In this document: positions 20,990 to 31,660 of the stretch, piece after piece
Position numbering within the stretch: position 1 is the first letter of the stretch
How the letters are laid out: every line of letters starts with the position of its first letter
Source: Haloferax larsenii JCM 13917
Lineage (GTDB): Archaea; Halobacteriota; Halobacteria; Halobacteriales; Haloferacaceae
Assembly: GCF_000336955.1 (NCBI RefSeq)
Contig: NZ_AOLI01000018.1
Location: 1 to 48,544, forward strand
Direction: 5' to 3'
Length of the DNA: 48,544 nt
Translations under genes and position numbers: made by a program
Notes under the pieces: generated by a model
The model's database searches: none
Seen by the model: only the letters and a program-made list of their open reading frames with translations
What the model was told of the DNA's origin: nothing

Positions 20990-21005
20990 TTTAGGCTAGC
21001 CTAAA
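20990..21005. promoter_or_regulatory. Iron box 1 (DtxR/Idr-type palindrome)
   Basis: TTTAGGCTAGCCTAAA is a perfect 16-bp palindrome of the DtxR/SirR/Idr kind (TTAGG...CCTAA core). It lies 70 bp upstream of dat. Binding of an iron-loaded repressor would shut off the operon in iron-rich cells. Confidence 0.85.
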
Positions 21006-21025
21006 CCAATGTAATGCGTTTCGGT

Positions 21026-21041
21026 TTTAGGTTGGCCTAAA
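21026..21041. promoter_or_regulatory. Iron box 2 (DtxR/Idr-type palindrome)
   Basis: TTTAGGTTGGCCTAAA differs from a perfect palindrome only in the central bases. It repeats box 1 at a centre distance of 36 bp. Two phased boxes suggest cooperative or dual-regulator (Idr1/Idr2-like) control of the dat promoter between them. Confidence 0.8.
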
Positions 21042-21810
21042 GATATTTGTGCAGTCCCCTACAACTGTTGGAGTTGTCGTCGTGAAGCGGTGCTCGAAGC
21101 CACGGTGGGAGGTCGTAGATTGAGTGGGGTGGATGAGGTTGAGTGGAATGAGAGGAGATGGATAAGAGGAGATAGGAGATGGGAGAAGGTAGGATAGGAT
21201 AGGATAAGAGGAGAGAAGATGGGCTGCGACGAGTGGTGGAAAACGGGAGACAATTCACCAGTCACTGGCCTTCGTATGGGGAACCACAGCAGAACAGTTG
21301 ATAAGATAGTACACAAGCAGATGCAGAAAGATAAGAGGAAGACAACGAGAGATAAAACTGAATGTCGAAATTAGTCAGTGAGAGTGTACATTCAAAAACA
21401 TTGGTGATTCCAGACACACATCTTAAATCAGAGTACATATAGAGAGAATACTTCATCAGCAGGCATTCAAATTCAGTGTTTGGGACCAGAGCAGAGAAAT
21501 TTGATAGTATACATTTCTTGATGTTTCCTGTCTACAGTTGAATTCTAGTTTCGGGAGAGACAATTCGCGAGGGGAAAACACATAGTGTCACCTAGATAGT
21601 AAATACTCCCCAATAGTGTTCTAGTTGTACAAGTACCTCAAATGACCCCATTACAGACATACGTGTGTAAATGGTAATTACCAACTACTAACAACATAAC
21701 CCTCGTTTGTTCAGGGAGTACCTTCGTCCGTCCACGGAGTCGGTCGTCGCCGGAATATCACGTCAACGGACTAAAACTTGATTATCCAAGCTGGAGAATG
21801 TGTGAGTGTG
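21042..21810. other. Long intergenic region with a purine-rich, C-free tract
   Basis: About 770 bp without a convincing gene. From 21115 to 21223 the plus strand contains no C and is mostly G and A with scattered T, including GGATA and GAGAT repeats. The part after about 21300 is AT-rich. Short frames on the minus strand in the tract are low-complexity Ser/Pro/Leu/His translations and are not genes. The promoter of the universal stress gene must lie in the last 100 bp. Confidence 0.6.
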
Positions 21811-22233
21811 ATGTACAACCATATCCTCATCCCCATCGACGGAAGCGATGGGTCCATGCGCGGTGTCGAGTACGGACTCGACATCGCACAGAAGTACGGC
21901 GCGACTGTGCACGCACTCTACGTCGTCGACCGGCGAACGTACGGCGATACGCCGGCACTTTCGAGTGACGAGTTGTTCTTCGAGCAGGTCGAAGACCACG
22001 GTGAAGAGATGCTCGGGGCAGTCGAAGAGAAAGCCAACGAACTGGGACTCGAAACAGTCACTGTCTGTAAGCGGGGGCTCCCGCACGAAACCATCCTCGA
22101 CTACGTGGAAGAACAGGGTATCGACCTCATCGTGATGGGAAAACACGGCCACTCGGATTTCGAGCTTCCACACATCGGAAGCTGTACGGACCGCGTGGTT
22201 CGGTCGGCGAAAGTTCCGGTCCACCCAATCTGA
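21811..22233 (+). CDS. UspA-family universal stress protein
   Basis: A 140-residue single-domain Usp protein. It opens with YNHILIPIDGSDGSMRGVEY and ends with the ATP-binding signature IDLIVMGKHGHSD, then IGSCTDRVVRSAKVPVHPI (G-2x-G-9x-G-S/T type, here G-KHGHS followed by GSCTDRV). Usp proteins bind nucleotide and are induced by stress or starvation. Here it converges with the phaC gene (20 bp apart). ATG 21811 is the family start; an open frame from 21778 is upstream and unlikely. Confidence 0.9.
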   Translation: MYNHILIPIDGSDGSMRGVEYGLDIAQKYGATVHALYVVDRRTYGDTPALSSDELFFEQVEDHGEEMLGAVEEKANELGLETVTVCKRGLPHETILDYVEEQGIDLIVMGKHGHSDFELPHIGSCTDRVVRSAKVPVHPI

Positions 22234-27952: not shown

Positions 27953-30900
27953 TTACAGATTGTGCGGCGGACGCTGGGCAGGCACGTCCATGTGGATGAG
28001 CCCGATAATGTTCAGCGTGCCAATGCCGTCTCGGCTCATCTTGTTTCCGCCTCTGTATTGCGCGCCTTCGATGTATTCGTCGTCGGGACGCGGGTCGAAG
28101 ACACCCTGGTCTTTGACCTTCACTCGAACCTCGATATTGTTGTCACCGGGGCAGTTCGGGTCGTAGACGTGGATTCGAGTGGTGTCCCCAGTCTCGATGT
28201 AATCGTACGCAAGAACCTGGTGGTTGTTCCAGATGTTTCCGTCGCCGGCGCGGACGTACACGAGTCCGAGAACAGTCGGGTCGCCGTCGTCCAGCGCCCG
28301 TTTCAGACTGCGTAGCTCCTCGACCGACCGCGCTCGGGTGAACGTGGTCGGGAGATAGAACTGGACGAACTTGCGCAGATGTCGGTAGGTGTGTTCGTGG
28401 TCGAACGTGTCCATCTGGCGCTTCCAGAGATACTCGAACAGAGGACCAGACTGTGGGGTTTCGTCGTCGGCGGTGTCCGGAACCTGGCGGTCGTAGAGGA
28501 AGAAGTCCAGCGCTGCGAGCGCCATCCCACCACACAGCCCGTATCTGGCGTCGATGTTCTCGATTTTGTCGTCGAGGTTGCCCGGGAGGGTGGGAAGGTC
28601 AGGAAGCTCGTTGAACGAGTTGACGAACTCGAACCCGTGACAACTCGGGTGGAACTCCGACACCGACCGGCGGTTCCCGAGAATCAACTGCGGAGTCACG
28701 AGGTAGCCGACTGTTTCCTCGGTGTGTGTTGCGGAGCCAGCTTCCTCTTCTTGCAAGCGGACCTCGGCCCCGTCGGAACGAATAGCCTGGTTTCGCGTGA
28801 CGACTGCGTCACCGCCGTTGTGGGTCTGACAGTGTGTGAGGAACACCGGGTTACACTGGAAATCACTGGCGAACGAGACGGTTCCGAATGTATGGTCTGT
28901 CTTTGTAGTCCCGACCTCGATGGGAACTTCGCCTTCGATTTCGTGGGCGCCTCGTTCGATTGCGACGTACCCGACCGACTCTTCGATGTGTGCCCCGTTG
29001 AGGGAGTCCCATTCTTCGATTTTGTACTCGAAGGAGTCCGAACCGACGTTGCGAATCCGCGTGTGACACGGGTCGCTTCCGTTGTAACTCATCACCTGTG
29101 CGAAGACGACCGGGTCCGAGTAGGATTCGTCCAAGTCGCAGGAGTGCCAGTGGTCGGCGGCGGGTTGGTGTGTCCGCACGACCCCTGCTTCGCCGATTTG
29201 CTCTCCTTTCTCGTCGAGGATTGCACCTGCTGACGTGGCGACGATTCCGACGTCTTCGGTGGTATGAGCCGTCTCGTCGTCGCCCGAGGTCTCTTCTTCG
29301 AGGAACAGTTCCATGCCGTGAGACCCGACATCTCGCAACCGAACACCGACCGTGTTTCCGCCGTTGAAGCTCTGTAACGACGCGAGCGCGACGGGTTCGG
29401 TCGATGGAATACCGGACAGCCCGACGGACGACCACTCCTCCGTCGCTTCGATAGTGCCCGTGGTGATATCGGCGGTCGTTCGCGGGGCGACCAGATAGCC
29501 GATGGTTTCGGTCGTGTGCTCACCGTCTCGCCCCTGTTCTTCCTGCAATCGGACGTCGGCCCCGTCCGCCGTTACCTGACGGTGCCGCGTGACCACTTCG
29601 TTGTGACCGTTGTACGTCTGACAGCGACTGATTACGACCGGGTCGCCACCGACGTCGCCATCGAAGTTCAGTCCAGTCCACGAGTCAGTTCCGTCTGTCG
29701 TCCCGACCTCGACGTAGCCACTGCCCGAAAGGTCGTGGCCACCGCTTTCGAGGACGATGTAGCCGATTTCCTCTTCGTAGTGCTCGCCATCGAGGTAGTC
29801 CCACTCCTCGATTTGGAACTCGAACGAGTCTGAGGCGACGTTCTGCACCCTGATGTGGCAGGGGTTGGTCCCCTCGTAACTCATCACCTGTGCGAAGACG
29901 ACCGGGTCCGAATACCGTCCGTCGAGAGCGACAGAGTGCCACTGGTCGCTTCCGGGTTGGTCCGTGCGTATCACTCCCGTTTCGCCGACACGTTCGCCCG
30001 AGGAATCGAACAACGGCCCAGTCCTGGTTTTGAAGAACCCGAGAACCTCCTCGGCGTGGTTCATCTCGTTGTCTTGGGAGGCCTCTTCCTCGACGAACAC
30101 CTGCATCCCACTCGCACTGACGTTCCGCATTCGAACGTCGGCGGGGTTGGCACCGTTGTAGGTGTCGATAGAGGCGACGACGACAGACTCCGACGGCTGA
30201 GCCCCCGAGAAGTTCACGTCAGTCCACTCGTGAGCCGACGCGACTCGTTCGGACGTGTACTGAGAGAGCGTCTGCGGGAGGACCAGATACCCGACTGTTT
30301 CGTCGGTGTGCTGGCCACCGCGGGCCTCTTCTTCTTGGAGTCTCACCTGTGCACCGTCACTCGCCACACGGCGATTTCTGGTGACGACCTCGTGCTCACC
30401 ATTTCGGGTCTGACAGTGCGTGATTAACACGGGGTCGCTTCCAACCTTGGCGGTGAAATCGACCGACTGCCACGCGTGGCCGGTCGTAGTCGTGCCGACT
30501 TCGACGGGAATCCCACTGGATAGCAGATGGACCCCCGCTTCGAGCACGACGTATCCGATTTCCTCTTCGTTGTGTGCGCCGTCGAGATGCTCCCACTCCT
30601 CGATTTGGAACTCGAAGGAGTCCGGGCCGACGTTCCGAATCCTCGTGTGACACGGGTTCCGCCCGTGATAGCTCATTACCTGTGCGAAGACGACCGGGTT
30701 CGAATAACTCTCGTCGAGGCTGACCGAGTGCCACTGGTCGTCATCGGCTTGCCTCGTCGCAACGACTTCCGACTCACCGATGGTGTGGCCGAATTGGTCG
30801 GTGATTTTCCCCGGTTCGGTGCTAAAGAAGCCAACTACCTCTCGGTTGTGGCGCGTCTCGCTGTCGCTCGACTGCTCTTCTTCCACGAAAAACTCCATGC

Positions 30901-31060
30901 CGTCGGAGTCGACGTTCCGTGTTCGAACTGCAGCAGTGTTATCCCCGTTGTACGTCTCGATTGACGCCAAAACTACTCTCTCGTCAGATTCACCGTTTGG
31001 AATCGATACTTCTGTCCACTCGTGTGACGACATCGCTCGGCCTGACAACTGAGTTGTCAT
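27953..31060 (-). CDS. Nine-module H-lectin-like protein with papain-like C-terminal domain
   Basis: A 1035-residue protein. Residues 12-789 are nine related modules of about 70 residues arranged as three A-B-C triplets: A at 12-81, 276-345 and 541-608; B at 107-176, 372-438 and 636-704; C at 194-262, 459-526 and 721-789. B modules carry QWHSVxLDxxYSDPVVFAQV and PCHTRIRNV. C modules carry the pattern DPVLITHCQTxNGxxxVVTR and VRLQEEE. They resemble H-type lectin repeats. The C-terminal part (about 800-1035) has YGLCGGMALAALDFF (Cys843), NNHQVLAYDY (His947) and VYDPNCPG (Asp967), a papain-like triad. No Sec or Tat signal and no membrane anchor are visible. The function is unknown; sugar binding plus peptidase or transferase activity is inferred. 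Confidence 0.8.
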   Translation of the reverse strand: MTTQLSGRAMSSHEWTEVSIPNGESDERVVLASIETYNGDNTAAVRTRNVDSDGMEFFVEEEQSSDSETRHNREVVGFFSTEPGKITDQFGHTIGESEVVATRQADDDQWHSVSLDESYSNPVVFAQVMSYHGRNPCHTRIRNVGPDSFEFQIEEWEHLDGAHNEEEIGYVVLEAGVHLLSSGIPVEVGTTTTGHAWQSVDFTAKVGSDPVLITHCQTRNGEHEVVTRNRRVASDGAQVRLQEEEARGGQHTDETVGYLVLPQTLSQYTSERVASAHEWTDVNFSGAQPSESVVVASIDTYNGANPADVRMRNVSASGMQVFVEEEASQDNEMNHAEEVLGFFKTRTGPLFDSSGERVGETGVIRTDQPGSDQWHSVALDGRYSDPVVFAQVMSYEGTNPCHIRVQNVASDSFEFQIEEWDYLDGEHYEEEIGYIVLESGGHDLSGSGYVEVGTTDGTDSWTGLNFDGDVGGDPVVISRCQTYNGHNEVVTRHRQVTADGADVRLQEEQGRDGEHTTETIGYLVAPRTTADITTGTIEATEEWSSVGLSGIPSTEPVALASLQSFNGGNTVGVRLRDVGSHGMELFLEEETSGDDETAHTTEDVGIVATSAGAILDEKGEQIGEAGVVRTHQPAADHWHSCDLDESYSDPVVFAQVMSYNGSDPCHTRIRNVGSDSFEYKIEEWDSLNGAHIEESVGYVAIERGAHEIEGEVPIEVGTTKTDHTFGTVSFASDFQCNPVFLTHCQTHNGGDAVVTRNQAIRSDGAEVRLQEEEAGSATHTEETVGYLVTPQLILGNRRSVSEFHPSCHGFEFVNSFNELPDLPTLPGNLDDKIENIDARYGLCGGMALAALDFFLYDRQVPDTADDETPQSGPLFEYLWKRQMDTFDHEHTYRHLRKFVQFYLPTTFTRARSVEELRSLKRALDDGDPTVLGLVYVRAGDGNIWNNHQVLAYDYIETGDTTRIHVYDPNCPGDNNIEVRVKVKDQGVFDPRPDDEYIEGAQYRGGNKMSRDGIGTLNIIGLIHMDVPAQRPPHNL

Positions 31061-31660
31061 ATTCTAATTATATTTATTTATCATATTAAATCTAGGCCGA
31101 GTTTCTGAATTGAGTGAACGAATGAACAAGGGGAGTCGAGACCAGCACCCAGACGGCTATTAACAGCGAGTTATACCAATTGTGAGATTCACAAAGTCCG
31201 TATATTGGCAGTTTACACCGGCAAGAGGTACTACCAAAATACGCACGACAGCAGTCTGAGATAACGCGTTATAGACCGCTTCATCTGCCACAAACCGATT
31301 GTGAGAAAAACACAGTTTCAATTTATTTAATCACGGACTCGGGGTCGCGCTTCCTCGCCGGACGAGACAATCGAAGTAGTGTGAGAAGAACCGTCGGTCT
31401 TTGTGACCCTCGCCCGATAGACACGACGAGCAAACGCAGTCAATCTTGTATGTTAATAACATCTCTATATTCACTAATGCATTGTTCACAAATTTATGAC
31501 CGAATAATATAATCTAGTGGTTAGGCCATCTATCTGAGCAATCGCTCAGTTTTAGTGACAGAGTAGAATATTTCTCCGAGAGGAACCACACAGAGTACCT
31601 CACAGACCAGGCTGTTCCAGACTAATCGTGTCTTTTCAAATCAATACTGGTTCCTGGCTC
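31061..31660. other. AT-rich intergenic region upstream of the lectin-like gene
   Basis: About 600 bp with no gene. It contains a perfect TTGTGA-gat-TCACAA repeat (31180-31194) and a related ATTGTGAGA...CACA at 31298. It also holds a 12-bp palindrome ATAACGCGTTAT (31261-31272) and a small hairpin at 31534. The promoter of the minus-strand 1035-residue gene should be at its left edge, where the sequence is very AT-rich (31061-31095). Confidence 0.6.
31534..31549. terminator. Small hairpin downstream of kdgK
   Basis: CTGAGC-aatc-GCTCAG is a perfect 6-bp stem followed by TTTTAG on the plus strand. It lies about 110 bp past the kdgK stop. It could end transcription of kdgK, although the T-run is on the other strand, so the evidence is thin. 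Confidence 0.35.

What the first reader, a model, noticed from the sequence alone, without database searches (positions are those of the whole stretch)
27953..31060. Nine-module lectin-like protein with a papain-like domain
The modules are arranged as three clean A-B-C triplets of about 265 residues, followed by a domain with Cys843, His947 and Asp967 in a papain-like order. I know no characterised haloarchaeal protein of this design. Lectin modules with a cysteine peptidase or transferase domain suggest recognition of a glycan-coated target such as an S-layer, a virus or another cell. No secretion signal is visible, so it may act inside the cell or be released by an unknown route. It lies beside the PHA genes but on the opposite strand.
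Basis: partly seen in the sequence, partly recalled or inferred. Interest (0 to 1): 0.8.

Follow-up and report, generated by a model that had tools for sequence, protein, structure and literature searches.

The report
Leaderless lectin-guided papain-like enzyme in haloarchaea
A salt-loving archaeon makes a protein that joins nine sugar-binding-like modules to an uncharacterised papain-like enzyme domain, with no export signal; relatives of this enzyme domain in bacteria carry quite different recognition modules, so it looks like a reusable aimed enzyme similar in plan to mushroom defence lectins.

Summary
ORF 27953-31060(-) encodes 1035 aa under purifying selection (dN/dS 0.13). Residues 6-800 are nine modules in three A-B-C triplets with a 264-aa period. 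Residues ~803-1035 carry Cys843, His947 and Asp967. Cys and His are identical in 45 of 45 sequences; Asp is Asp in 43 and Asn in 2. The domain matches no Pfam or NCBIfam family, yet 50 of 391 Halobacteria genomes have it. AlphaFold models (pTM 0.73, 0.77) put Cys at the start of a helix, His in a strand and Asp after the next strand. The best PDB matches are papain-like enzymes, but none is significant.

The domain tree splits in two. One clade (42 haloarchaeal proteins) has Tat-type export signals. The other has none: Haloferax, Halorubrum and Halovivax proteins with these triplets, plus bacterial relatives carrying an aegerolysin-like domain or a BP39L-like propeller. The same triplet sits on haloarchaeal subtilases, an astacin and other enzymes.

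I read it as a leaderless, multivalent lectin-guided cysteine enzyme, probably a peptidase, working like the fungal chimerolectin MOA but not belonging to that family. Target, substrate and release are inferred. The link to PHA genes is positional only.

The parts
27953..31060 (-). ORF, 1035 aa: nine lectin-like modules plus papain-like domain
   Evidence: 92% identical 1035-aa orthologue in H. elongans, same-length orthologue on H. larsenii plasmid pHl5678-1; dN/dS 0.13
31064..31066 (-). in-frame stop just upstream of the ATG; excludes an upstream signal peptide
30761..31045 (-). module A1 (residues 6-100)
30500..30760 (-). module B1 (101-187)
30254..30499 (-). module C1 (188-269)
29969..30253 (-). 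module A2 (270-364)
29708..29968 (-). module B2 (365-451); carries the best H_lectin stretch (396-434)
29462..29707 (-). module C2 (452-533)
29177..29461 (-). module A3 (534-628)
28916..29176 (-). module B3 (629-715)
28670..28915 (-). module C3 (about 716-797)
27956..28654 (-). papain-like domain (about 803-1035)
   Evidence: alignments A1/A4/A6, models, fold searches
28532..28534 (-). Cys843, predicted nucleophile, in G-x-C-x-G-M
   Evidence: identical in 45 of 45
28220..28222 (-). His947, in N-H-Q-V-L-A-Y
   Evidence: identical in 45 of 45
28160..28162 (-). Asp967, in Y-D-P-N
   Evidence: Asp in 43 of 45, Asn in 2

Best explanation
A leaderless 'chimerolectin'. Each A-B-C triplet is a single-chain mimic of the trimer that H-type lectins form (inferred), so three triplets give a strongly multivalent glycan binder. 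The C-terminal papain-like domain uses Cys843-His947-Asp967 to form a thioester with its substrate, most likely cleaving a protein on or near the bound surface. With no signal peptide, it is made and stored in the cytoplasm and would meet its target only on cell lysis, by unconventional release, or when the cell is engulfed. Shown: architecture, conserved triad, fold-class resemblance, lack of signal, exchange of recognition modules between relatives. Inferred: sugar binding, peptidase chemistry, target, mode of release.
For: Triad conserved across archaea and bacteria. Cys at the start of a helix, His in a strand, Asp after the next strand. PDB fold matches led by papain-like enzymes TDE0362 and BtaeB CTD (probability 0.95-0.99), then cathepsins. 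Leaderless clade separated from Tat clade with 100/100 support. In the leaderless clade the domain carries H-lectin-like triplets (haloarchaea), an aegerolysin-like domain (L059/L060), or an aegerolysin-like domain split by a BP39L-type propeller (L055). The same triplet is fused to an astacin, subtilases, GH26- and GH32-like, deacetylase and CAP domains. Module counts of 3, 6 or 9 in 26 of 29 proteins listed. Fungal MOA combines a lectin with a papain-like protease (PMC8244254) and its nematotoxicity depends on glycolipid binding and protease activity (work cited in PMC3355094); fungal aegerolysins NigA are leaderless (PMC7763983).
Against: No sugar binding or enzyme activity is known for any member. 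Fold-search E-values are not significant (best 0.015) and TM-scores low (about 0.3). Module profiles do not reach a solved H-type lectin. Most other triplet-bearing proteins have export signals, so a leaderless lectin is unusual.
Confidence: 0.5

Rival explanations
1. The C-terminal domain is a papain-fold acyl transferase, amidase or cross-linker rather than a peptidase, used to modify a glycan-coated target or the cell's own surface.
For: BtrH_N, a papain-like acyltransferase domain, gives a weak match over the His-Asp region of the Halorubrum homologue (E 0.19); phytochelatin synthase is among the weak fold matches; the HQVLAYxY/YDPN motifs resemble C39/BtrH-type enzymes (own knowledge).
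Against: Better-ranked fold matches include the proven protease TDE0362 (PMC11833123) and cathepsins; the triplet is often fused to proteases.
Confidence: 0.25
2. An ordinary extracellular hydrolase that digests or remodels extracellular glycoprotein or biofilm, released by lysis or an unknown route, like the lectin-tagged subtilases of other haloarchaea.
For: Same triplet on subtilases, an astacin, GH26-like, deacetylase and CAP proteins, many with Tat-type N-termini; the sister clade of the enzyme domain carries Tat-type signals.
Against: All nine tree rows of the fused clade, including bacteria, lack a Tat motif and none shows a clear N-terminal hydrophobic segment.
Confidence: 0.25
3. An intracellular defence or stress protein (anti-viral or PHA-related).
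For: No export signal; neighbour of PHA genes in H. larsenii and H. elongans.
Against: No PADLOC hit; no shared neighbour in Halorubrum or Halovivax among the genes checked, so PHA linkage is not conserved; glycan targets are expected outside the cell.
Confidence: 0.08

Closest known systems
Fungal papain-like chimerolectins (Marasmius oreades agglutinin, Polyporus squamosus lectin; Pfam PF18021/PF18022)
   Same: Lectin modules plus C-terminal papain-like cysteine domain
   Different: Lectin is beta-trefoil there, H-type-like here; no sequence match to those Pfam models; MOA not among the fold matches listed
H-type lectins (Helix pomatia agglutinin, discoidin; PF09458)
   Same: Whole-protein Pfam match above cut-off; modules in threes recall the trimer
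   Different: Three different modules in one chain; single modules score poorly; no hit to solved members
Papain-like enzymes of clan CA (TDE0362/IdeS-Mac type, cathepsin B, C39/BtrH_N)
   Same: Cys-His-Asp/Asn order and predicted fold
   Different: No significant sequence similarity to any Pfam or NCBIfam member; G-x-C-x-G-M, H-Q-V-L and Y-D-P-N signature of its own
Bacterial aegerolysin-like and BP39L-type lectin proteins (Paraburkholderia L055; IMG/VR L059/L060)
   Same: Same catalytic domain family, no export signal, recognition module attached
   Different: Unrelated recognition modules

Membership tests
H-type lectin (PF09458) | Pfam score above curated cut-off | tested here: met
   31.1 bits against 24 for the whole protein; relatives up to 63.6 bits
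H-type lectin (PF09458) | Individual modules recognisable, similarity to solved H-type lectins | tested here: inconclusive
   1 of 9 modules at E 0.045; no PDB hit with profiles
H-type lectin (PF09458) | Binds GalNAc or other glycans | not testable with these tools
   needs a binding assay
Papain-like clan CA | Cys-His-Asp/Asn in this order, conserved | tested here: met
   45/45, 45/45, 43 Asp + 2 Asn of 45
Papain-like clan CA | Helical lobe with Cys at helix N-terminus, then beta lobe with His and Asp | tested here: met
   DSSP of models, pTM 0.73 and 0.77; moderate confidence
Papain-like clan CA | Significant fold or sequence match to a solved member | tested here: inconclusive
   top matches papain-like, probability 0.95-0.99, E 0.015-0.022; profile search E above 0.2
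Papain-like clan CA | Peptidase activity | not testable with these tools
   needs assay
MOA-type fungal chimerolectin | Beta-trefoil lectin domain and PF18021/PF18022 peptidase | tested here: not met
   no such Pfam match at E up to 10
Polymorphic toxin with immunity gene | Conserved adjacent immunity gene | tested here: not met
   no shared neighbour between Haloferax, Halorubrum and Halovivax copies in the genes checked
Known anti-phage defence system | PADLOC model match | tested here: not met
   none

The most novel reading that the evidence does not exclude
A leaderless, lectin-guided cysteine protease kept in the cytoplasm as a defence protein, released on lysis or engulfment to attack a grazer or competitor: the first such chimerolectin in archaea, assembled independently of the fungal ones, from a catalytic domain shared between archaea and bacteria that swaps recognition modules.
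Probability: 0.2. Interest if true: 0.85.

Novelty: new variant of a known kind. Interest (0 to 1): 0.6.

Why it matters
It defines an uncharacterised papain-like family with no Pfam model, present in about 13% of sampled Halobacteria genomes and in some bacteria, and shows that its leaderless branch is joined to at least three unrelated recognition modules. If the protein binds glycans and cleaves proteins, archaea would have their own version of the lectin-protease plan known from mushrooms, and the question of whether haloarchaea defend themselves with stored proteins becomes directly testable.

Tried and rejected
Pfam, NCBIfam, PHROGs and PADLOC searches of the C-terminal domain: no family. 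PDB sequence searches with domain profiles: no significant match; the Ufm1-protease match (E 1.2) covers only the His-Asp region. PDB searches with module profiles: nothing. Phage collection: no relatives. 398 Pseudomonadota genomes: none, so the domain seems rare there (no positive control in that set). PHA-related role set aside because the neighbourhood is not conserved. BFVD fold search gave nothing useful.

Full report
What is there. The ORF at 27953-31060(-) is 1035 aa. The genome is close to Haloferax larsenii: H. larsenii plasmid pHl5678-1 carries a same-length orthologue, and H. elongans one of 92% identity. RefSeq annotates the H. larsenii copy from a later start as a hypothetical protein, which would cut into the first module. 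Between this window and H. elongans dN/dS is 0.135 for the lectin part and 0.128 for the enzyme part, so both are kept by selection. The whole-protein search finds only this one copy in the genome.

The lectin part. Nine modules of about 82-95 residues fall into types A, B and C; within a type identity is 39-68%, between types 20-33%. The whole protein passes the Pfam cut-off for H_lectin, and relatives with the same triplet pass it more strongly (63.6 bits). Single modules are weak, and profiles made of them do not find solved H-type lectins, so the assignment is good but not proven. A homologue scan with the module model counted 3, 6 or 9 modules in 26 of 29 listed proteins; the other three gave 4, 4 and 7, with partial hits. 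I infer that the triplet is the working unit and copies, in one chain, the trimer of H-type lectins (trimer: own knowledge; structural relatives of this fold in PMC6363177).

The triplet is a cassette. In 391 Halobacteria genomes, 39 have a match to the lectin part. In the relatives examined it is joined to an astacin, subtilases, GH26- and GH32-like, polysaccharide deacetylase and CAP domains, often with Tat-type N-termini. It also occurs in Rhodobacteraceae and in a MAG labelled Parcubacteria. So the triplet itself is not special to this protein; its tripling, its N-terminal place and the leaderless context are.

The enzyme part. Residues ~803-1035 match no Pfam or NCBIfam family. A profile finds the domain in 50 of 391 Halobacteria genomes, one per genome, in 19 of 86 genera. 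In an alignment of 45 sequences from archaea and bacteria, the residues equivalent to Phe812 and Asn814, the G-x-C-x-G block, His947, Leu950, and the Tyr and Asn of Y-D-P-N are invariant; Asp967 is Asp in 43 and Asn in 2, as expected for the third residue of a papain-like triad. AlphaFold models from 18 and 42 sequences (mean pLDDT 68.6 and 73.8, pTM 0.73 and 0.77) place the Cys at the start of a helix, the His in a strand and the Asp just after the next strand. The best PDB matches are papain-like enzymes: TDE0362, BtaeB CTD and cathepsins; probabilities of the first two are 0.95-0.99 but E-values only 0.015-0.022 and TM-scores near 0.3. The fold class is likely; the exact relationship is not settled.

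Two branches. A maximum-likelihood tree of 51 domains separates a leaderless branch from a Tat branch with 100/100 support. The Tat branch has 42 haloarchaeal rows: 40 carry a Tat-like motif by pattern, and the other two (L061, L082) show one by eye. The leaderless branch holds Haloferax, Halorubrum and Halovivax-group proteins with 9, 9, 6 and 6 modules, Paraburkholderia, Microvirga and two IMG/VR contigs. Long branches make positions inside it uncertain. In the window gene an in-frame stop sits just before the start codon, so a missed signal peptide is excluded.

Other recognition modules. In L059/L060 the domain follows an aegerolysin-like domain; in Paraburkholderia L055 that domain is split by a propeller matching BP39L lectin (E 2e-33), and its first half matches a solved 13.6-kDa insecticidal crystal protein (E 1.5e-6), which I place with the aegerolysin-like proteins from own knowledge. 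The two halves match L059 at E 2e-8 and 3e-8, flanking the propeller. In Halorientalis the Tat-type relative has a DUF5122-like propeller. Thus one catalytic family is fused to unrelated recognition modules. This is the strongest argument that the lectin part aims the enzyme.

Context. The gene lies beside PHA and KDG-pathway genes in H. larsenii and H. elongans. Halorubrum and Halovivax copies lie among genes for amino-acid metabolism, TatC and a transporter. No partner is shared among the genes checked, which argues against a toxin-immunity pair and against a PHA role.

How it may work. I think it most likely that the protein waits in the cytoplasm and, once released or engulfed, binds glycans through three triplets and cleaves a nearby protein with its papain-like domain. 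The plan matches fungal MOA, a lectin with a papain-like protease (PMC8244254), whose nematotoxicity depends on glycolipid binding and protease activity (work cited in PMC3355094). Cytoplasmic, signal-less defence lectins and leaderless aegerolysins are known from fungi (PMC3355094, PMC7763983). It is not a member of the MOA family: the lectin fold and the catalytic family differ. Searches of the open-access library for H-type lectins in archaea and for lectin-cysteine protease proteins in haloarchaea found no paper that appears to describe it; that library is incomplete.

Noticed in passing
L021-L033, L063-L103 (haloarchaeal loci): An apparently undescribed family of roughly 300-510-aa Tat-signal proteins carrying the same papain-like domain, one per genome; longer members have a further C-terminal stretch of about 120-185 aa.
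   Followed up: partly
L055:2480-5824: Paraburkholderia caribensis MBA4 plasmid ORF in which a BP39L-like propeller is inserted inside an aegerolysin-like domain, followed by the papain-like domain and more propeller repeats; no annotation in the collection's gene table.
   Followed up: partly
L059/L060:4572-5906: Aegerolysin-like plus papain-like protein on IMG/VR contigs, directly after a gene with a weak Peptidase_G2 match and glycine-rich repeats.
   Followed up: partly
L004-L014, L037-L053: H-lectin-like triplet attached to many different enzymes in haloarchaea and Rhodobacteraceae, apparently a general carbohydrate-binding-like cassette.
   Followed up: partly
L054:7805-10750: RefSeq start of the H. 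larsenii orthologue lies 54 codons downstream of the ORF start and would remove about half of module A1; probably misannotated.
   Followed up: no
window 21001-22000: Drop in G+C to 47% with strong GC skew just before a universal-stress-protein gene.
   Followed up: no
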